DNA of 33,151 nucleotides from Ignavibacteriota bacterium (GTDB lineage: Bacteria > Bacteroidota > Ignavibacteria > UBA10030). The stretch spans positions 102,655 to 135,805 of the forward strand of contig PLMK01000065.1 in NCBI GenBank assembly GCA_003142475.1. The letters are read 5' to 3'. Each line of letters opens with the position of its first letter. The first letter of the stretch is position 1. The notes under the pieces are model-generated. The model was not told where the DNA came from and searched no databases. It saw only the letters and a program-made list of their open reading frames with translations. The position numbers and the translations under genes were made by a program. Below, piece by piece: positions 1-7,675 of the stretch.

Positions 1-1196
1 TCCATGCTGTTCTGGATAATCGGCTCAAGCACCTCCCAAATTACATATTCATTAATTGCCACCTCGGGCATCTTAGAGTCCAGTTGCAAATCAAACTTTG
101 TTGTTAGTCGATTATCCGATACCCTCTGAAAAATATTTTCTACAATGAATTTAATAACCTCATTCACATTCGTTTTAAACATCGGACCCCGAATAGTCTG
201 AATTGGTGGATCATACCATTTCATATCATAAATAACTCGAGCAACAAAACTAACATATTTGCCGATCCTGTTCTTGATTACGTCATTATTGTCCTCGGTC
301 AAATTCCGTAAATCCTCCTTAATAAATCCACCTATCTTTTCAGCTTTATGATGAGTATGATAAATCCGCTTGGTAAAGAGCATTTCTTTCTGGTGATTAA
401 TTTGTTCCGCCAAATGTTGTTTTTGTTCTTCAAACAATAGCCGCTGAACCTCATTCCGTTCTGCAAGCGTTCGGGTCGAGATATAATACATCGCGAACAA
501 TCCAACAATAATGAGAGCAGAATATACCAATGCTGTCTGATTGTAATTCTTTGACATCTCCTCAGTGAGGAACGTAAGATCGGGAGCTGTCTTCATATAG
601 ACCACCCCAACAAATTCTCCTCTCGGGACGAAGGGAATAAATACATGGAATATTTGGTCGTGTTCTACTATTGTATAAGATTGCTCGATTTTACGAAGCG
701 TATCTTGTACGGAACGGAATAACCTAACAGCTTCAGTGTGCATACTTTCTGAATTATGAATCCTATTAGCATTCCCGAAAAAATAGTCATACAGCTGTTT
801 ACCGTCATCAATGACATCAATCATATTTCCATGAGGGATGAGAATAGAAACACCCTGAACATTTTTATCTAATAATTGCTGACTAAAAATGATGTTAAAG
901 TCTTGAATGATTTTCCGCTCTTCACTTTCCGACAGCCGTTCTTTCGAACTTTTAGATTCTAAAAGCATTTCGATGGTTGTCGCCGTAAGATTCGCAATGC
1001 GTTCAGCAGCATCTTGCTGATACCATTGCTGAGATTTTACAAATGCTTTTTGGAGTGAATTCTGATTCATGAAAAGAACAATGAACTGGAAAGCAATTAA
1101 TACAATCGCAAGCACCGTAATGTGCCTGATCTCAAAGCGATACTTATGATATCTTTCACGTAAGCTTTGCGGATTATTTGGCTTTGCTTTTTTCAT
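1..1196 (-). CDS. Sensor histidine kinase, partial (C-terminus beyond left edge)
   Basis: I translated this gene directly; it is open from the ATG at 1196 to the window edge (398 codons). It shows a transmembrane helix at about residues 24-43, an extracytoplasmic sensor region of about 170 residues, a second helix at about 222-240, a coiled-coil-like linker rich in Glu and Gln (245-272), and a His-rich segment (H280, H282, H283 in RIYHTHHKAEKIGG) where the phospho-accepting H-box should be. The visible part ends in an N-box-like stretch (EVLEPIIQNSM, N396), so the window cuts inside the ATPase domain. No HAMP domain is evident. The start codon overlaps the stop of the solute-binding-protein gene as ATGA, implying translational coupling and that the binding protein feeds this kinase. 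The H-box assignment is by position rather than by a perfect motif. A response regulator may lie beyond the edge. Confidence 0.85.
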   Translation of the reverse strand, partial: MKKAKPNNPQSLRERYHKYRFEIRHITVLAIVLIAFQFIVLFMNQNSLQKAFVKSQQWYQQDAAERIANLTATTIEMLLESKSSKERLSESEERKIIQDFNIIFSQQLLDKNVQGVSILIPHGNMIDVIDDGKQLYDYFFGNANRIHNSESMHTEAVRLFRSVQDTLRKIEQSYTIVEHDQIFHVFIPFVPRGEFVGVVYMKTAPDLTFLTEEMSKNYNQTALVYSALIIVGLFAMYYISTRTLAERNEVQRLLFEEQKQHLAEQINHQKEMLFTKRIYHTHHKAEKIGGFIKEDLRNLTEDNNDVIKNRIGKYVSFVARVIYDMKWYDPPIQTIRGPMFKTNVNEVIKFIVENIFQRVSDNRLTTKFDLQLDSKMPEVAINEYVIWEVLEPIIQNSM

Positions 1197-2503
1197 TTGA
1201 TCAAAACTTCGTTAGAACGAATAAGTTCATCGCTTCGCGCCAGCGCTTGTTCGACGGAGATTTGTTGCTTAATGGCGAGGTGTGCAAAATGAGAAATAAT
1301 ATCTGAAACTCTGGTGTAATCAACAAGTGCAGGCCGATGAAATCCGTGTCGAAGCATTGTACGATAGAAAAATATGTCTGTATGTGTTTTTGCAAATGCT
1401 GTATCCTCATACACAGATTGAATTGCGGGTAAATATCCCATTCGTTCAAAAATCATTCGCTGTGTCGATTCACGTTGATAGAATTTAATGAACTCGATAG
1501 CCGCAGCTTTTTTTGTTGATGATTTTGAAATCATAAAATCCCAACCACCAAAGATCGAAGAAGAAGGTTTTCCTTTGAAATGCGGCATCGGAACTTTTAC
1601 AATGTATTTCAACTTTGCCGTATCTCTATATGCCGTGCGGAAATTCTGAACCAGATCTTCCCAGCTGCGGAGAAATACAGCATTATGATCGAGCATATAA
1701 GTGTTACATCGAAATTCGTCAAAATCGGTTACTTCCGGCGGTGTCGTTCCATCTTTGACAAAATTCACCATCATCTGAAGCGCATTCCTTGATGCCGGCA
1801 ATGTTACTTGAATGGTATTCGATTGAAGGAATTTCGGATCGTTTCCAACCGCAAGCTCAAGGTAATTACATATCAACCCCTCATAATCTTTTGCAGGGAA
1901 GAGATAGAATGGTTTATTCATATAGCCTAATCTCTCACGTAAATGCGCCATTTCTTCCCAGGTCATTGACTCCTGTAGACGCTTCTCGATAGCATCCGCA
2001 TCAGGCAACTTTCGAATTATATCCCGACGATAATATAAAAGACCTATATCAAGATACATCGGCATTGCTACAAGTGTTCCTTCAAATACACACGACTTTA
2101 AAGCATCTTTCAGTAACCGTTTTTTCTCATCGATTGAAAAGTAGGAATCCAGCGGCTCACTCCATTTCGCGAAACGCGGAACCCAAATAAGATCAACCGC
2201 AAAAATATCGAGTTTTTCACTCTTGCTGCGAAGTGAACGTGCAAGTAACTCTTTCCGTTCGTTCGTACTGAATTTTGAAAATGGCAAATTAACAGGAACG
2301 ACTTCAATCTTTCCTGCATATAGACGATTGAACTCGTCAATCGCCAGCTGATGTGAGAGAGAAATATTATCTGCATAATACAATTTAACAGGCTGATTTT
2401 TTTCTTCCTTATGGAATACACTAAAAAGTGTTGTAAGCCATCCTATACCAATAAATATTGGGATAATAAGGATTGCCAAAATAAGTAACTGTCTTTTATG
2501 CAT
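1193..2503 (-). CDS. Extracellular solute-binding protein (sugar-type family 1), likely sensory
   Basis: The 436-residue protein starts with a hydrophobic signal or anchor segment (about residues 6-30) without a lipobox. It then has the layout of ABC sugar-binding proteins: an early strand followed by an amphipathic helix (VKLYYADNISLSHQLAIDEF), the LDIFAVDLIWVPRFAKW segment typical of these proteins, and a late FGGWDFMISKSSTKKAAAIEF stretch where family members read 'GG..l.I...sk...aA..Fi.f'. A GGAAGAAG ribosome site lies 7 bases before the ATG. No ABC permease or ATPase gene is nearby; the only partner is the histidine kinase, whose ATG overlaps this stop codon. I infer that the protein presents a ligand, probably a sugar, to the kinase rather than serving transport. 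The ligand cannot be read from the sequence. Confidence 0.85.
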   Translation of the reverse strand: MHKRQLLILAILIIPIFIGIGWLTTLFSVFHKEEKNQPVKLYYADNISLSHQLAIDEFNRLYAGKIEVVPVNLPFSKFSTNERKELLARSLRSKSEKLDIFAVDLIWVPRFAKWSEPLDSYFSIDEKKRLLKDALKSCVFEGTLVAMPMYLDIGLLYYRRDIIRKLPDADAIEKRLQESMTWEEMAHLRERLGYMNKPFYLFPAKDYEGLICNYLELAVGNDPKFLQSNTIQVTLPASRNALQMMVNFVKDGTTPPEVTDFDEFRCNTYMLDHNAVFLRSWEDLVQNFRTAYRDTAKLKYIVKVPMPHFKGKPSSSIFGGWDFMISKSSTKKAAAIEFIKFYQRESTQRMIFERMGYLPAIQSVYEDTAFAKTHTDIFFYRTMLRHGFHRPALVDYTRVSDIISHFAHLAIKQQISVEQALARSDELIRSNEVLIK

Positions 2504-2758: not shown

Positions 2759-3037
2759 TCAATTTTTAAAGTACTCGATAGGACATTCCCGCTGGTATTC
2801 AACCGGCTGTATTTTTTTCATTTCGTATGCATCTCTTGGCACAAATATTATTTTCAGCTTATTGAAGCACGGTAATATTCTTATACATGCCAATGGAGTC
2901 GATTTGTTCTGCGTAAAATCCCCAAGGTGTTAGCCGGCAGGACGATCAAATTCACTTCCCCAAGGAGGAGAAATGATATTCATAGGCAGCGTCGAGTCAG
3001 AAGAAAATAATTTTAGCCAAGTTGATCTACCCCTCAT
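2759..3037 (-). pseudogene. Possible decayed small gene, protein-like in three successive frames
   Basis: Downstream of the Rid-like gene the minus strand carries three adjoining open stretches that each read like protein but sit in different frames. The first is 3037-2930, from an ATG overlapping the Rid stop and containing ISPPWGSEFDRPAG. The second is about 2933-2859, containing TPWGFYAEQIDSIG. The third is 2860-2759, containing KLKIIFVPRDAYEMKK and ending PIEYFKN-stop. Two single-base-type frame changes would join them into roughly 90 residues. I do not recognise the family. Short open stretches in this base composition can occur by chance, so this is a suggestion only. Confidence 0.3.
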
Positions 3038-4223
3038 CTTTCTCAATAATAAATGCGGCATCGATTTCAAATAATAATTCATCTCTGCAAACATCTGCTA
3101 CCACATTGACAGAAGGGGCGTTTGAAATACCAACCTGTTCCATGATCTTCTGATAGATAGAGAAATCCTGCCGGCGTTTTAAAAATACCGTAGCCTCACA
3201 TATATCCTGCAGCTTCGCCCCTTCCGGAGCGATTAAATCCGAGACGACATTAAATGTTTGTTGCATCTGCTGAGCAGGGTCACCGATAAAAACGCTCTTT
3301 CCGTCTTCATCGATGGACGCTGTACCGGAAACAAATATCAATTTACTCTCGGCGTCTTCAATAACTACTGCACGTGAAAATGCAGATCCATACCGAAACG
3401 GCGAACGCTGCTTCGTGCTATAAATAGGCCGAACTTTTATGGAACTTGTCGGTGAACGATGCACAGCAAAGAGGTCCATTGTTGCAGCGCGTCCGAATGG
3501 ATTTTTCCCCTCAATACCCGTGCTCGCTGGAAGATATATCTGTTCCGCAGGCATTTGAGTGTCTGCATTGCCGATAAATCCATATTCCGAGTAACAATGA
3601 TTTCTTACAACATTGAAATCATCGTACCAATCAAGAATATCTGAAATATAAATCCATGTTCTCACCACATCTTGATATGTAGATCCTTGAGCGTGAAGAA
3701 GTCTTTCTGCTTGACGAAACATTGCTTCTGATTGAACTTTTCTATTTGACTGTTCTGCACCGTTTGCAGTACCGCCGTCAATACTCTGGAGCACATAAAA
3801 CGTTGAGCCATTAATATTCCATGCTCGTCCTTTGGGAATTCCATCATCGATAATTGTCCGGATAGTTGTTCCTGATGCAGGTTTCAAAGCTCTCATCTGA
3901 AAACCGGCGATAGAATTCTCAAAGCAAGATTCCCCTTCCACAAAAGTGACAGGTGTATTTACTTGTATCTGATGCTTACCCAATGCGCGCATTCGGGCTT
4001 TTTGGATTTGCTGATGAAGTTCCACTTTGGTGAAGCATCGTTCATGAATAATCTGGCTCGAAGAAGCAGTCAAGATATCGGCTATTTTGCTATAAATTTC
4101 CTCGGTTGTTTTTTCCGGATCTGCATCTCTTTCGGTGATTGAAACGCTGAGAAACAACTGATTATGCAATGATGTAATATAAAGTTTGTACGTAGGGTAT
4201 AACTCGAAAGAACGTTGAATCAT
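3027..4223 (-). CDS. Two-domain Rid (YjgF/YER057c)-fold protein, chorismatase-like architecture
   Basis: This 398-residue cytoplasmic-looking protein has a poorly conserved N-terminal region (1-125), a first Rid-like domain (about 130-255, with DVVRTWIYISDI and YDDFNVVRNHCY) and a second, better conserved Rid domain (about 278-394, with FVSGTASI, GDPAQQMQQTFNVVSDLI and a final LFEIDAAF). Tandem Rid-fold domains, the LPASTGI stretch between them and SGTASI in the second are also features of chorismatases such as FkbO and XanB2, but I would not claim that activity. The arginine that canonical RidA uses to bind the imine substrate (P-A-R-S) appears as NAPS (368-371), so ordinary RidA enamine/imine deamination is doubtful. 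The ATG sits one base after the stop of the beta-propeller gene with no strong ribosome site, so it is probably translated by coupling. It is the last gene of a three-gene unit. Confidence 0.8.
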   Translation of the reverse strand: MIQRSFELYPTYKLYITSLHNQLFLSVSITERDADPEKTTEEIYSKIADILTASSSQIIHERCFTKVELHQQIQKARMRALGKHQIQVNTPVTFVEGESCFENSIAGFQMRALKPASGTTIRTIIDDGIPKGRAWNINGSTFYVLQSIDGGTANGAEQSNRKVQSEAMFRQAERLLHAQGSTYQDVVRTWIYISDILDWYDDFNVVRNHCYSEYGFIGNADTQMPAEQIYLPASTGIEGKNPFGRAATMDLFAVHRSPTSSIKVRPIYSTKQRSPFRYGSAFSRAVVIEDAESKLIFVSGTASIDEDGKSVFIGDPAQQMQQTFNVVSDLIAPEGAKLQDICEATVFLKRRQDFSIYQKIMEQVGISNAPSVNVVADVCRDELLFEIDAAFIIEKDEG

Positions 4224-4224
4224 C

Positions 4225-5826
4225 TCATTTGCTCGTTTTGCGGTTTATCGTATTATTTTTTTTCAATTGATCATCGAGGATAACAGGTTTTGACTTATTC
4301 TCATTTCTATTTGAGAGGACATTCGTATCCAATTTCGCAGTCAAAGCATCCTCTTTGGAGAAAGCTGCATCTGCCAGAGTTTGCGGATTCATGCGAACGG
4401 GTTCTTTGACGAATTCCGGAACATTATAGACTTCTAAACAGGTTTTGTAAAATAAAGGATTCTCCTGCGGCAGGACAAACGGTTTTGATGCTTTCCCCAG
4501 CGAATCAATATGGCTGAAATATGGTCTTGTGAATAAACCATCATCTCGTTTACTCGAAAACACAATCCACCGACCGTTGCTTGACCAGGAATGAAACGAA
4601 TCAGTCCGATCACTGTTCACTTCTAACTTTTTCCATTTACCACTTGTTACATCTAATAAATACAAATCGGCGCTTGGAAGATAGATCGGAAACTGGCTGT
4701 ATTTCGCTGCCGTGAAAAGAACAAAACGGCCATCTGGTGAAACCCTTGGTTCGGTAATACTTAATCCTAATTCTGTAGAAGATATGACCGTTTCGAGTTT
4801 TCCCCATGTGTGATTCACTGGATCGTACGCAATCCGCATCAAATCGTATTTGATTCTATCGATTGCTACATCATTGGGTTTAACAAGATTTTCAAATGTC
4901 TCTATTTTAGGTGCGCTGCAAAAATAAAGGGATTTGCCATCAGGTGACCATGCAGGCCAAATTTCCATACGGTCAGGGCTGGAAATCGCCGGTGTGGTCG
5001 TGATGGTGTTCGTCGGAATATCATATAGAATAATGTCAGAATACTGATCCAGCACATCGCGGCATTCACCCGTTTGGTGGAAAAGAAGATGCAACTTGCT
5101 GACAGAGAATGCGATCAAATTTCCGGATGGGTGCCAAGCTGGATAAGCAGCAGGCCCATTGAACTTGGTCTTCGTGTCGATTTTATGGACTTTGCCGTCC
5201 ACAACTAAAAGCATTGAAGTCCCGGGCGCACCACGCATATGGAGAAGCCATCGGTCTGTCCCGTTCTGCCAGAAATTATGACAATTCATGCAATTATTTG
5301 ATGTCAGCCGATTAAGAAGAATCGGCTTTTCGTTGAAGTTTTCAAGACATCGCTGAAAAATACCAATCTTCTTATATAAGTTGAACAGAGGACCAAATTT
5401 TCGGTACGCCAAATATCCATCCATAGAATCCTGTGCAATTCGATTCACCACCGAATCGAATTGGACCCATTGACCGCTCTGGTTTTTCATAAAAATATCC
5501 ATAATCAGTTGTTGCCCACGGTTCCCTGCGAGCAAGCGTTTCCAAGCCCCCAAAGGAATTTGGATATGACCAGAGCTGTTTTGAATCCGAATCGGATCCC
5601 CCTGTGTGGATCGAATCCGAACGAAATAATCCTGACCGGATTCCTTCACCGAAAAATTCAAAGGTGCAATGTTTGGAGGAATGAGGATTCCGGAATAATC
5701 GGGCTGGATGTTTGCGGATCGACCTGCGGATTGGATGTCCGGTCTCCCCTCCGGCGTTGAACAACCCGCGCACAGAATGAACAAAATCAAGTAAACGATT
5801 TCAGTAATTTTTTTATTGATATTCAT
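4225..5826 (-). CDS. Exported lipoprotein with CxxCH motif and TolB/PD40-like beta-propeller
   Basis: I place the start at 5826 (533 residues), 165 bases inside the longest frame: this ATG has GGAG upstream and opens a clean lipoprotein signal (MNINKK..., hydrophobic core, LCAGC, lipidated Cys22). The extra upstream residues would bury that signal. After a beta-rich region comes CMNCHNF (C179, C182, H183), a c-type heme attachment motif, then DRWLLHMRGAPGTSMLLV and four PD40-like blades at about 228-243, 290-304, 358-374 and 409-426 (for example WSPDGKSLYFCS, VSPDGRFVLFTA). TolB-like propellers bind proteins or glycans; the single CxxCH suggests a heme or another Cys/His site. It overlaps the DUF6057-like gene by 14 bases and is followed one base later by the Rid-like gene. 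From memory, similar propeller proteins sit beside DUF6057 proteins in other Bacteroidota. The substrate or partner is unknown. Confidence 0.8.
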   Translation of the reverse strand: MNINKKITEIVYLILFILCAGCSTPEGRPDIQSAGRSANIQPDYSGILIPPNIAPLNFSVKESGQDYFVRIRSTQGDPIRIQNSSGHIQIPLGAWKRLLAGNRGQQLIMDIFMKNQSGQWVQFDSVVNRIAQDSMDGYLAYRKFGPLFNLYKKIGIFQRCLENFNEKPILLNRLTSNNCMNCHNFWQNGTDRWLLHMRGAPGTSMLLVVDGKVHKIDTKTKFNGPAAYPAWHPSGNLIAFSVSKLHLLFHQTGECRDVLDQYSDIILYDIPTNTITTTPAISSPDRMEIWPAWSPDGKSLYFCSAPKIETFENLVKPNDVAIDRIKYDLMRIAYDPVNHTWGKLETVISSTELGLSITEPRVSPDGRFVLFTAAKYSQFPIYLPSADLYLLDVTSGKWKKLEVNSDRTDSFHSWSSNGRWIVFSSKRDDGLFTRPYFSHIDSLGKASKPFVLPQENPLFYKTCLEVYNVPEFVKEPVRMNPQTLADAAFSKEDALTAKLDTNVLSNRNENKSKPVILDDQLKKNNTINRKTSK

Positions 5827-7675
5827 TTTGCTTCTCCGGCTGCCGCGGGGGGGTTTTGACAAACATGAGATAATACCAATAGGTGTCGCCGAACCACGCC
5901 TGCAATTCCTGATTTGCACCGCCTCTGTCCCCATTATGCTTGACAAGAATTTTCCGGTACGCCACAAAATGTTCGAAGGTGATTGGGTCAATCCATTCTT
6001 TTAATTTGTTCACATCGAATGTTGGAGTCATAGATGCCATGACGAGTAATGCTTCCTGAACATGATGTGGAATTTTTGTATAATTCAAAGCCTTAAAATC
6101 CTCAATGTGATTCCAGACCCCAATGAGGTTTGCATTCAACAGATGATAGGCAATCAAGTATTCAAACGCCATTTTGTTTTTAGGATTCCGTTTTACAAGC
6201 TGCTCCAATTCCAGAGAAGACATTTTATCGCCTGAAACTAAATCCTCGATGAGCATGCACGATTGTATGTACTTGCACGTGCTGTCCTGAGCAAATTCCG
6301 CCGGATTTTCATTGAGTCGAAGTAAATTCTCGGCAGTGTTGTCCTCGAAAGGAACCTTCTTAAGATTCAGAAAAAAATGGCTGGCGGCATTATTCTCACC
6401 CTTCACCGCATAAGCCATCCCTAGTCGTTTTAAAATGTCGGGAGTGGAACCCTTGTGTTCAAGGGCTTCATGCGCCCAGTGCAAAGATTCGTTGACGAGC
6501 CCCAATTTCCAGGTTATGTTGCTCGTTTCCTCAGGCCAGGCAGCACACCACGTTAGATTCATGAGAAGTCCAAGAGTACCTTTCGATTGAGGATAAGCGA
6601 ACATGCTGTCAAGAAGTTTTCCCGTCTGATATAGTGCGAGGTTGGATTGAGATAAGACGAGAGGTGTTTCGTTCGAACAATATTTAGTCAATTCGAGTAC
6701 ATCAGTCCAATGTTCCTCCCTCACAGCTCGATTGACTTGGAGAACAACCTTTTTTAAGTCGTTAGTGGATTCCTTCGCCAACAGGAAAGTTCCACTTAAT
6801 AAGAGGAGTGTTCCTGCTGCCCATTTCCAGATAAAGGCAAGTCTAACAAATTTTTGGAATGGTTTCCGAATTCCAGGTAATTTTGCGATCGAAACGATTA
6901 TTAGTGTTAGTAGAAAAAAAACAGGGAGACTGTATGCAATGATCCAGGATTCAATCGGAATCTCAAAAGTCAGGTTATGCAAATAAGCTTGTTTCAGAGT
7001 AATGAGAAAAACAGATATGGATGCCACGAAAGGTAGAATGGCAGAGAACAACAGAAGTAAAAGACCGCTTACAATCTTTCTCCTGAGAAAAAGATTCTCC
7101 AATCCGCAGAGAACGGCAAACATCAGGAAAGCACCACCAGTGATCCAATATAAAAAAACGGTGATAACTAAACCCATACCGATATGAATCACCGGTCGTT
7201 TCGGTGACCAACGAATGAATAAAACCAGAAATAATAAATTAATGATTATTGCTAATGTAGCGCTCAGATCAAAATCGTAATTGCTATAAATGACGAGTAG
7301 AAGGCCAGCCGGAATCAGATGGAATGTATGAACAGGACGATTTTCTATTAGGGTTTCTATCCATTTTCTCGTTAAGAATGCAACTGTCCAAAAACAAATA
7401 GTTAGAAATAAGGCGCTCAAAAAATCGGAAAACCAGAATTGCATCAAAAGGGCTGAAAGCCAATTGACTAATCCGCCTGGGATTTTTAAAAAATCATACA
7501 GAAAATCGATTCCTTTTAAGAAAACAGGTGGGTGCGTTTCGAGAATAAGAACGGGATGAATTCGAAGTAATAGGTAGAAGAAGCACGCTAGAAAAAAAAT
7601 GGCTTCTTGAATCCAAACACTTAAAGACGTAAAATTATTTTTTTTTTCAGCTCGGGACATTTTTTCACTTATCAT
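5813..7675 (-). CDS. DUF6057-like polytopic membrane protein with C-terminal TPR-like region
   Basis: A 620-residue protein. The first half (to about residue 305) is membrane-embedded, with roughly nine to ten hydrophobic helices beginning at QEAIFFLACFFYLLLRIHPV; the second half is a soluble helical region with TPR-like pairs (for example HWAHEALEHKGSTPDILKRLGMAYAVKGENNAASHFF). That layout, the length and the early HPPVFLKG segment fit what I remember of the uncharacterised DUF6057 family of Bacteroidota. Its ATG overlaps the end of an open frame belonging to the decayed recombinase, so its promoter lies within or just before that scar. The stop overlaps the start of the CxxCH-propeller lipoprotein by 14 bases, so the two are probably translated together and may form an inner-membrane / periplasm assembly. 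An alternative start is Met6. The function is unknown. Confidence 0.75.
   Translation of the reverse strand: MISEKMSRAEKKNNFTSLSVWIQEAIFFLACFFYLLLRIHPVLILETHPPVFLKGIDFLYDFLKIPGGLVNWLSALLMQFWFSDFLSALFLTICFWTVAFLTRKWIETLIENRPVHTFHLIPAGLLLVIYSNYDFDLSATLAIIINLLFLVLFIRWSPKRPVIHIGMGLVITVFLYWITGGAFLMFAVLCGLENLFLRRKIVSGLLLLLFSAILPFVASISVFLITLKQAYLHNLTFEIPIESWIIAYSLPVFFLLTLIIVSIAKLPGIRKPFQKFVRLAFIWKWAAGTLLLLSGTFLLAKESTNDLKKVVLQVNRAVREEHWTDVLELTKYCSNETPLVLSQSNLALYQTGKLLDSMFAYPQSKGTLGLLMNLTWCAAWPEETSNITWKLGLVNESLHWAHEALEHKGSTPDILKRLGMAYAVKGENNAASHFFLNLKKVPFEDNTAENLLRLNENPAEFAQDSTCKYIQSCMLIEDLVSGDKMSSLELEQLVKRNPKNKMAFEYLIAYHLLNANLIGVWNHIEDFKALNYTKIPHHVQEALLVMASMTPTFDVNKLKEWIDPITFEHFVAYRKILVKHNGDRGGANQELQAWFGDTYWYYLMFVKTPPRQPEKQNEYQ

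What the first reader, a model, noticed from the sequence alone, without database searches (positions are those of the whole stretch)
3027..7675. Uncharacterised trio: DUF6057-like membrane protein, CxxCH beta-propeller lipoprotein, two-domain Rid-like protein
Three genes overlap or abut (14-base overlap, then a 1-base gap), so they are one translational unit. They combine a polytopic membrane protein with a TPR-like tail, a lipid-anchored propeller with a possible c-type heme site (C179, C182, H183), and a Rid-fold protein lacking the usual substrate arginine. Nothing in known Rid, TolB or cytochrome biology predicts this trio. A working idea is a membrane-anchored periplasmic sensor or redox module with a cytoplasmic metabolite-processing partner. 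My recollection that DUF6057 and such propellers are neighbours elsewhere points to a conserved system rather than chance.
Basis: partly seen in the sequence, partly recalled or inferred. Interest (0 to 1): 0.65.

Follow-up and report, generated by a model that had tools for sequence, protein, structure and literature searches.

The report
Conserved DUF6057–CxxCH propeller gene pair
Two genes of unknown function, one for an inner-membrane protein and one for a lipid-anchored ring-shaped protein with a haem-type motif, travel together through several bacterial phyla, and here they are joined by a third gene that looks like an enzyme acting on chorismate.

Summary
In detail: three minus-strand genes overlap or abut (14-base overlap, then 1-base gap). 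The core is a pair. DUF6057 is predicted as a 9-TM, N-in protein with a periplasmic TPR domain; the lipoprotein is a TolB-type six-bladed propeller. Of 81 propeller genes fetched by propeller sequence, 71 have DUF6057 next to them on the same strand, in seven phyla. CxxCH is kept in 81 of 81, and in 55 of 55 of a second set. Partner distances correlate at r = 0.81 over 115 pairs. The third gene is optional (10 of 80 named loci, 5 of 50 others) but not random. It is not a Rid without its arginine: Arg, catalytic Glu and three Hyg5-type chorismatase residues are invariant in 15 of 15, though it scores below the curated chorismatase cut-off. Best reading: a periplasmic propeller–TPR complex with a haem-c or metal site, sometimes coupled to a chorismatase-like enzyme. 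Haem is likely, not shown: maturation genes are usually present, but the motif lies in a predicted propeller strand. No paper on DUF6057 was found.

The parts
5813..7675 (-). DUF6057 protein, 620 aa: predicted 9 TM helices (residues about 14-303), N-in, C-terminal periplasmic TPR domain
   Evidence: Pfam PF19529 315.6 bits; model pLDDT 90.8, pTM 0.89; TPR matches, best Z 11.3; loop charges, with the TM borders chosen by me from the model
5858..6763 (-). C-terminal helical/TPR domain of DUF6057 (about residues 305-606); most of the conserved columns lie here
   Evidence: Fold matches cover mainly 321-463; conserved columns such as W323, N345, A347, L348, F359, E403, P536, E541, A542
4225..5826 (-). 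PD40/TolB-type propeller lipoprotein, 533 aa
   Evidence: Pfam PD40 76.5 bits; model pLDDT 90.7; TolB Z 26.5, 3.1 A over 279 residues; lipobox Cys C22 in 55 of 56
5278..5292 (-). CMNCH motif, residues 179-183 of the lipoprotein, in a predicted strand (179-185) that I read as the innermost strand of blade 1
   Evidence: CxxCH in 55 of 55 and 81 of 81 relatives that cover it; strand assignment
3027..4223 (-). Two-domain Rid-fold protein of chorismatase type, 398 aa, no evident signal peptide (by eye)
   Evidence: TIGR04444 62.2 bits, E 4.7e-17, cut-off 325; profile of 15 relatives matches 5ag3 at E 4.9e-41 and FkbO 4bps at E 2.6e-32
3066..3089 (-). C379-R380-...-E386 motif, equivalent to C327, R328, E334 of chain 5ag3 (Hyg5; E334 is the catalytic Glu)
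   Evidence: Invariant in 15 of 15; alignment, residue numbers counted by me; role of Glu-334 from passages of PMC7170507

Best explanation
The core is a two-gene envelope module. SHOWN: DUF6057 and the CxxCH propeller lipoprotein are inherited together as an adjacent pair in several phyla, and CxxCH is kept. PREDICTED: DUF6057 is an inner-membrane protein with nine TM helices and a TPR domain in the periplasm, and the propeller is TolB-like. INFERRED: the lipoprotein docks on the DUF6057 TPR domain; its CxxCH with the conserved arginines R142, R159 and R198 holds a cofactor, more likely than not a c-type haem; and the complex works as a periplasmic enzyme or sensor, often placed in loci for carbohydrate uptake and breakdown. 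In some lineages, including this window, the operon also carries a cytosolic chorismatase-type enzyme, expected to turn chorismate into a hydroxybenzoate plus pyruvate, which may supply a ligand or substrate to the module.
For: Pairing: 69 of 81 propellers fetched by propeller sequence have DUF6057 adjacent on the same strand (56 upstream, 13 downstream), many with a 4-base overlap; two more appear when overlapping ORFs are kept, 71 of 81. Co-evolution: r = 0.81 over 115 pairs, maximum of 500 permutations 0.05; the best outside match is the same cassette for both partners in 12 of 22 cassettes from loci with several. A distant sister family carries the CxxCH propeller and TPR repeats on one chain. 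Haem: of genomes at least 90% complete in one Bacteroidia family, 29 of 31 with the propeller have PF01578, against 11 of 15 without; one more of the 31 has ResB at a contig end; 47 of 50 named propeller genomes have PF01578. Only 2 of the 31 have NrfA, so the machinery serves something else there. Third gene: Glu, Arg and the Hyg5-type G236, G300, C379 invariant in 15 of 15; genome co-occurrence with DUF6057 4 of 5 against 5 of 240 (class) and 5 of 6 against 4 of 389 (phylum).
Against: No haem was measured. CxxCH lies in a predicted beta strand, whereas classical cytochrome c has a helical turn there (recalled). No cytochrome family is among the 25 listed Pfam families for the propeller set. 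The maturation-gene contrast is weak (one-sided P 0.08, or 0.03 counting ResB), and G431, 99% complete with four strong propeller matches, shows neither PF01578 nor ResB. Four propeller-free genomes keep PF01578 without NrfA, so other clients exist. Docking on the TPR was not modelled. The carbohydrate context is partial and has no background rate: SusD directly upstream in 6 of 48, S9 peptidase directly downstream in 10 of 47. In L132 DUF6057 sits beside a sister-family propeller with its own TPR-like tail, which weakens the fusion argument. The third protein scores far below the TIGR04444 cut-off, and its link to the pair rests on a minority of loci.
Confidence: 0.45

Rival explanations
1. 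The conserved pair is real, but CxxCH is not a haem site: Cys, Cys and His on the inner strand of blade 1 bind another metal or serve as a structural or redox pair, and the propeller is a binding protein or metalloenzyme.
For: Motif in a predicted strand. Foldseek rows also include oligogalacturonate lyase propellers (3c5m; 3pe7 with manganese) and the surface lipoprotein BtuG1 (8ptd). G431 has propellers and no detected maturation genes. H232 (52 of 56) and H412 (54 of 56) are also well conserved.
Against: The strict CxxCH order without a substitution (55 of 55 and 81 of 81) is typical of haem c (recalled); maturation genes usually present.
Confidence: 0.35
2. DUF6057 is a GT-C-like membrane glycosyltransferase with a periplasmic TPR domain, and the propeller is its partner or acceptor.
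For: Topology N-in, first periplasmic loop with short helices, periplasmic C-terminal domain. The first Foldseek row is chain I of a human OST-A/Sec61 translocon (8b6l, E 0.067) and the fifth is chain A of yeast OST (8agc, E 0.14), which I take to be STT3A and Stt3. Many cassettes lie near glycan genes.
Against: Those matches are not significant (TM 0.21). No conserved acid in the first periplasmic loop: best column 31 of 59 D/E. No GT-C Pfam family known to me is among the 25 listed of 55.
Confidence: 0.12
3. One reading: a membrane-anchored redox or sensor module with a cytoplasmic Rid partner that processes a metabolite such as an imine.
For: Pair and CxxCH conserved; the Rid-type arginine is present.
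Against: The third protein's profile matches chorismatases best and over more of its length than single-domain Rid proteins; no conserved TM histidine in DUF6057.
Confidence: 0.08

Closest known systems
TolB (Tol-Pal system propeller)
   Same: Six-bladed PD40 propeller; best structural match, Z 26.5 over 279 residues
   Different: TolB has no CxxCH and is not a lipoprotein (recalled); ours scores 47.3 bits against the TolB cut-off of 343.15
Chorismatases Hyg5 / FkbO / XanB2 (TIGR04444)
   Same: Two Rid-type domains; G173, G240, C327 and catalytic E334 of Hyg5 all kept (residue roles from passages of PMC7170507)
   Different: 62.2 bits for the window protein against the cut-off 325; in an operon with envelope proteins; activity unknown
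Hydrazine synthase alpha subunit
   Same: Propeller plus c-type haem motif in one chain; structural match Z 22.8 over 295 residues (5c2v chain D; that it is the alpha subunit is recalled)
   Different: Its haems lie after the propeller, in middle and C-terminal domains (passages of PMC12758564); not among the 37 sequence matches of the propeller profile at E up to 1
Propeller lipoproteins of Bacteroidota such as BtuG (8ptd) and XusB (recalled)
   Same: Lipid-anchored propellers near TonB-dependent or SusC-type genes
   Different: No CxxCH and no DUF6057 partner known to me (recalled); ours also occurs outside Bacteroidota
TMTC/PglL-type membrane transferases with TPR tails (recalled)
   Same: Polytopic membrane domain followed by periplasmic or lumenal TPRs
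   Different: No conserved acid found in the first periplasmic loop of DUF6057

Membership tests
DUF6057 (PF19529) | Score above Pfam gathering cut-off over most of the model | tested here: met
   315.6 bits against 29.8, model positions 9-568 of 569
TolB equivalog (TIGR02800) | Curated cut-off | tested here: not met
   47.3 bits against 343.15
TolB-type propeller fold | Structural similarity over most of the domain | tested here: met
   Z 26.5, 3.1 A, 279 residues; the first twelve rows are TolB entries, Z 25.4 to 26.5
c-type haem protein | CxxCH conserved across the family | tested here: met
   55 of 55 (one further row truncated) and 81 of 81
c-type haem protein | Exported | tested here: met
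   N-terminal hydrophobic stretch and lipobox Cys: 22 of 22, 55 of 56; it is not among the 90% columns of the 56-row set. Export itself not measured
c-type haem protein | Host genome has cytochrome c maturation | tested here: inconclusive
   29 of 31 and 47 of 50 with PF01578, 11 of 15 in propeller-free genomes; G431 has propellers and none found
c-type haem protein | Covalent haem | not testable with these tools
   Needs protein
Classical cytochrome c fold | Helical fold or Pfam cytochrome match | tested here: inconclusive
   No cytochrome family among the 25 listed of 53 for 56 members; motif in a strand
Chorismatase | Catalytic Glu (Hyg5 E334) | tested here: met
   E386 invariant, 15 of 15, with C379 and R380
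Chorismatase CH-II (Hyg5 type) | Gly173, Gly240, Cys327 (Nat-hyg5 164, 231, 318) | tested here: met
   G236, G300, C379 invariant, 15 of 15; residues from passages of PMC7170507. Of eight further relatives without the pair, one (L245) has SSGNASF in place of SGTAS. CH-III was not compared
Chorismatase (TIGR04444) | Curated cut-off 325 bits | tested here: not met
   62.2 bits for the window protein; all 15 relatives match at E up to 1, best 1.2e-46
Chorismatase N-domain (PF21168) | Gathering cut-off 27 bits | tested here: not met
   25.7 bits
Chorismatase | Turnover of chorismate | not testable with these tools
   Needs enzyme assay
RidA imine deaminase (TIGR00004) | Curated cut-off 106.25 bits | tested here: not met
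   50.6 bits
GT-C glycosyltransferase | Conserved acid in the first periplasmic loop | tested here: not met
   Best D/E columns between residues 40 and 83: 31, 27 and 24 of 59
GT-C glycosyltransferase | GT-C membrane fold | tested here: inconclusive
   OST rows 1 and 5, E 0.067 and 0.14, TM 0.21; membrane domain not searched alone

The most novel reading that the evidence does not exclude
A new class of c-type cytochrome: haem attached inside a blade of a TolB-type propeller lipoprotein, held on a nine-TM/TPR inner-membrane partner, spread over several phyla in up to several copies per genome, and in some lineages coupled to a dedicated chorismatase.
Probability: 0.3. Interest if true: 0.78.

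Novelty: new variant of a known kind. Interest (0 to 1): 0.55.

Why it matters
A gene pair this conserved, multi-copy in some Bacteroidota and also present in planctomycetes, KSB1 and others, probably does something general in the envelope, and no paper in the held library was found under DUF6057 or PF19529. The CxxCH in a propeller strand makes a sharp bench question (haem or not). The coupled chorismatase-like gene would extend chorismatase chemistry, known to me mainly from natural-product clusters, to an envelope operon.

Tried and rejected
Rejected: 'Rid lacking its arginine'. Rejected: chance neighbourhood. Not supported: DUF6057 as a cytochrome b-like partner (no conserved TM histidine) and as a GT-C enzyme (no conserved acid). 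Profile of DUF6057 against solved structures: best E 0.047. No viral relatives of DUF6057 at the sensitivity used. Hydrazine synthase was followed up because of its Z of 22.8; its haems lie after the propeller (passages only). Chorismate synthase directly upstream in two loci (L103, L112) was set aside: the two share a run of neighbours and look like relatives. A 'convergent' gene family beside DUF6057 (cluster 11) was set aside, as the propeller is really there in three such loci (see below). Rows missing from the VIA-align lists were not used as evidence of absence.

Counting limits. Set 1 (50 loci, 55 propellers over 400 bits) was picked by DUF6057, so its pairing rate is biased; set 2 (80 loci, 81 propellers) was picked by the propeller and is the one used. 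My gene calls keep the longest ORF, so they miss real genes: in set 1 the propeller beside DUF6057 was overlooked in L093, L097 and L098 (seen), and L100 has DUF6057 behind a small opposite ORF. For set 2 the cases without DUF6057 were rechecked with all ORFs. One contig is in both sets under two names (L107, L176), so the sets are not fully independent and its genome is in both. Hits under 400 bits (L085 fragment, L132, L156 second) were left out. Propeller presence in the 31 genomes was checked by loci or by search, absence in the 15. One search used 50 of the 80 named loci; completeness of those genomes is not told. Close relatives are counted singly, so the Fisher values overstate independence. 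No tree was built for the third gene. Neighbour tallies used 47 of 56 downstream genes (nine Rid-type genes dropped) and 48 of 63 upstream genes (short ORFs, the Rid of L040 and genes already in the downstream list dropped).
Full report
CHECK. On the minus strand three ORFs follow one another: DUF6057 7675-5813, lipoprotein 5826-4225 and a Rid-fold protein 4223-3027, with a 14-base overlap and a 1-base gap. The families are clear: PF19529 315.6 bits, PD40 76.5 bits, Ribonuc_L-PSP 69 bits in two stretches. The genome holds a second DUF6057-propeller pair without the third gene beside it, on contig C72, flanked by a gene with CE2/GDSL esterase domains and one with GH26 and epimerase domains.

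DISTRIBUTION. DUF6057 is over its cut-off in 6 of 395 genomes sampled from the phylum, in 5 of 245 of the own class and in 45 of 61 of one other family of the phylum, often in several copies. Some of these hits are half-length relatives, such as L041:8124-9284.

PAIRING. In these 80 loci there are 81 propeller genes over 400 bits. DUF6057 is adjacent on the same strand for 69 (56 upstream, 13 downstream); 3 are first or last in the contig slice; 9 lacked one. Keeping overlapping ORFs recovered DUF6057 upstream in two more (L125, L154), so 71 of 81; of the remaining seven, L156 has one about 1 kb away on the same strand. In the DUF6057-selected set, 51 of 55 propellers have it upstream, 2 adjacent on the other strand and 2 none, one of those two because a small opposite ORF lies between (L100). 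The most common upstream spacing is a 4-base overlap. Distances of the two partners correlate at r = 0.81 over 115 pairs (maximum of 500 permutations 0.05); the nearest neighbour is the same pair for 62 of 115, and the best outside match is the same cassette for 12 of 22 cassettes in loci with several.

THE PROPELLER. CxxCH is present in 55 of 55 sequences that cover it in set 1 and in 81 of 81 in set 2 (one search found 80; the 81st lies late in a long ORF). In the 56-row alignment C179, C182, H183, R142 and R198 are invariant and R159 is in 55. The model (pLDDT 90.7, pTM 0.89) is TolB-like (Z 26.5 over 279 residues). Residues 179-185 are a strand; by its place in the order of strands I read it as the innermost strand of blade 1 (inference; no coordinates were available). 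A distant sister family has CxxCH in the matching place (L245, L247, L156, L132) with a repeat tail: TPRs by Pfam in L245 and L156, by eye in the other two.

HAEM OR NOT. Of genomes at least 90% complete in that family, 29 of 31 with the propeller have PF01578 over the cut-off, against 11 of 15 without (Fisher one-sided P = 0.08; 0.03 if G405, which has ResB at a contig end, is counted). Of 50 named propeller genomes 47 have it. NrfA is in 2 of the 31 but in 7 of the 15, so most propeller genomes keep the machinery without that common client. Against: G431 (99% complete, four strong propeller matches) shows neither PF01578 nor ResB, and four propeller-free genomes (G400, G401, G427, G449) keep PF01578 without NrfA, so other clients exist.

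DUF6057. The model (pLDDT 90.8, pTM 0.89) has a helical membrane part and TPR repeats (best Z 11.3). Loop charges fit nine TM helices, N-in, TPR in the periplasm. No whole-model Foldseek match reaches E 0.001; rows 1 and 5 are OST chains that I take to be Stt3-type. No conserved acid in the first periplasmic loop and no conserved TM histidine. Pfam scans of 59 members give DUF6057 in all and weak hits, several of them TPR, in at most 4 (25 of 55 families listed).

THE THIRD GENE. Its profile finds chain 5ag3 (E 4.9e-41) and FkbO 4bps (E 2.6e-32) well above single-domain Rid proteins (best E 2.7e-16). Catalytic Glu-334 of Hyg5 and the CH-II residues Gly173, Gly240, Cys327 (from passages of PMC7170507, by its offset of 9; positions counted by me on 5ag3) correspond to E386, G236, G300, C379; all are invariant in 15 of 15. 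In the paper on Rid subfamilies (PMC4433059, passages) the key arginine is Arg105 (E. coli TdcF numbering); I take R380 as its counterpart. The gene is in 10 of 80 named loci: nine beside a propeller (one on the other strand; L174 without DUF6057) and L157 beside DUF6057; titles are KSB1, Planctomycetota, Lentisphaerae and Bacteroidota. It is in 5 of 50 loci of set 1: three beside the propeller, one beside DUF6057 (L040), one three genes away (L035). By genome: 4 of 5 DUF6057 genomes against 5 of 240 in the class; 5 of 6 against 4 of 389 in the phylum. Elsewhere it occurs near carbamoyltransferase genes (L246, L248) or the propeller-TPR sister (L245).

CONTEXT. Genes directly downstream include S9 peptidases (10 of 47) and several glycoside hydrolases; directly upstream SusD (6 of 48) and DUF4369 (5 of 48). 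Two clusters whose representatives are SusC-like and SusD-like lie within six genes in 17 and 13 loci of set 1. No background rate was computed.

LITERATURE. No paper in the held library contains DUF6057 or PF19529; CxxCH, beta-propeller, lipoprotein and Bacteroidetes together gave none; a looser search found 74 papers, of which I saw 12 listed, none on this pair by title or abstract start. Most subscription journals are not held.

VERDICT. The core is a pair; the third gene is a recurrent add-on and a chorismatase relative. Haem on the propeller is the key open question.

Noticed in passing
L245:2608-4716, L247 from 16514, L132:3924-6392, L156:6847-9681: Sister family: CxxCH propeller with a TPR tail on one chain; in L245 it is divergent to a chorismatase-like gene, in L132 beside DUF6057.
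   Followed up: partly
   Followed up: partly
L041:8124-9284 and similar hits: A half-length DUF6057 relative of about 390 aa occurs, also in genomes without the propeller.
   Followed up: no
window 3-2503; L114:7638-10441: A solute-binding protein gene next to a second gene (histidine-kinase-like ATPase domain in L114) lies beside the cassette in two genomes of the genus.
   Followed up: partly
L081:10423-11076 and cluster 5: Small proteins (DUF4369 in L081) sit beside the pair in several loci; in L035 the order is Rid-type gene, such a small gene, DUF6057-type ORF, propeller.
   Followed up: partly
L246, L248: Chorismatase-like genes without DUF6057 nearby lie close to carbamoyltransferase genes, as in a biosynthetic cluster.
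   Followed up: partly
L128:7272-8435: A ChaN-type haem-binding protein (PF04187) lies two genes from a DUF6057-propeller-chorismatase-like cassette in a planctomycete.
   Followed up: no
window 8257-31541: By eye the rest of the window looks like a glycan-use locus (MFS transporter, large hydrolase-like ORFs, sigma factor, anti-sigma and TonB receptor-like ORFs); families not scanned here.
   Followed up: no
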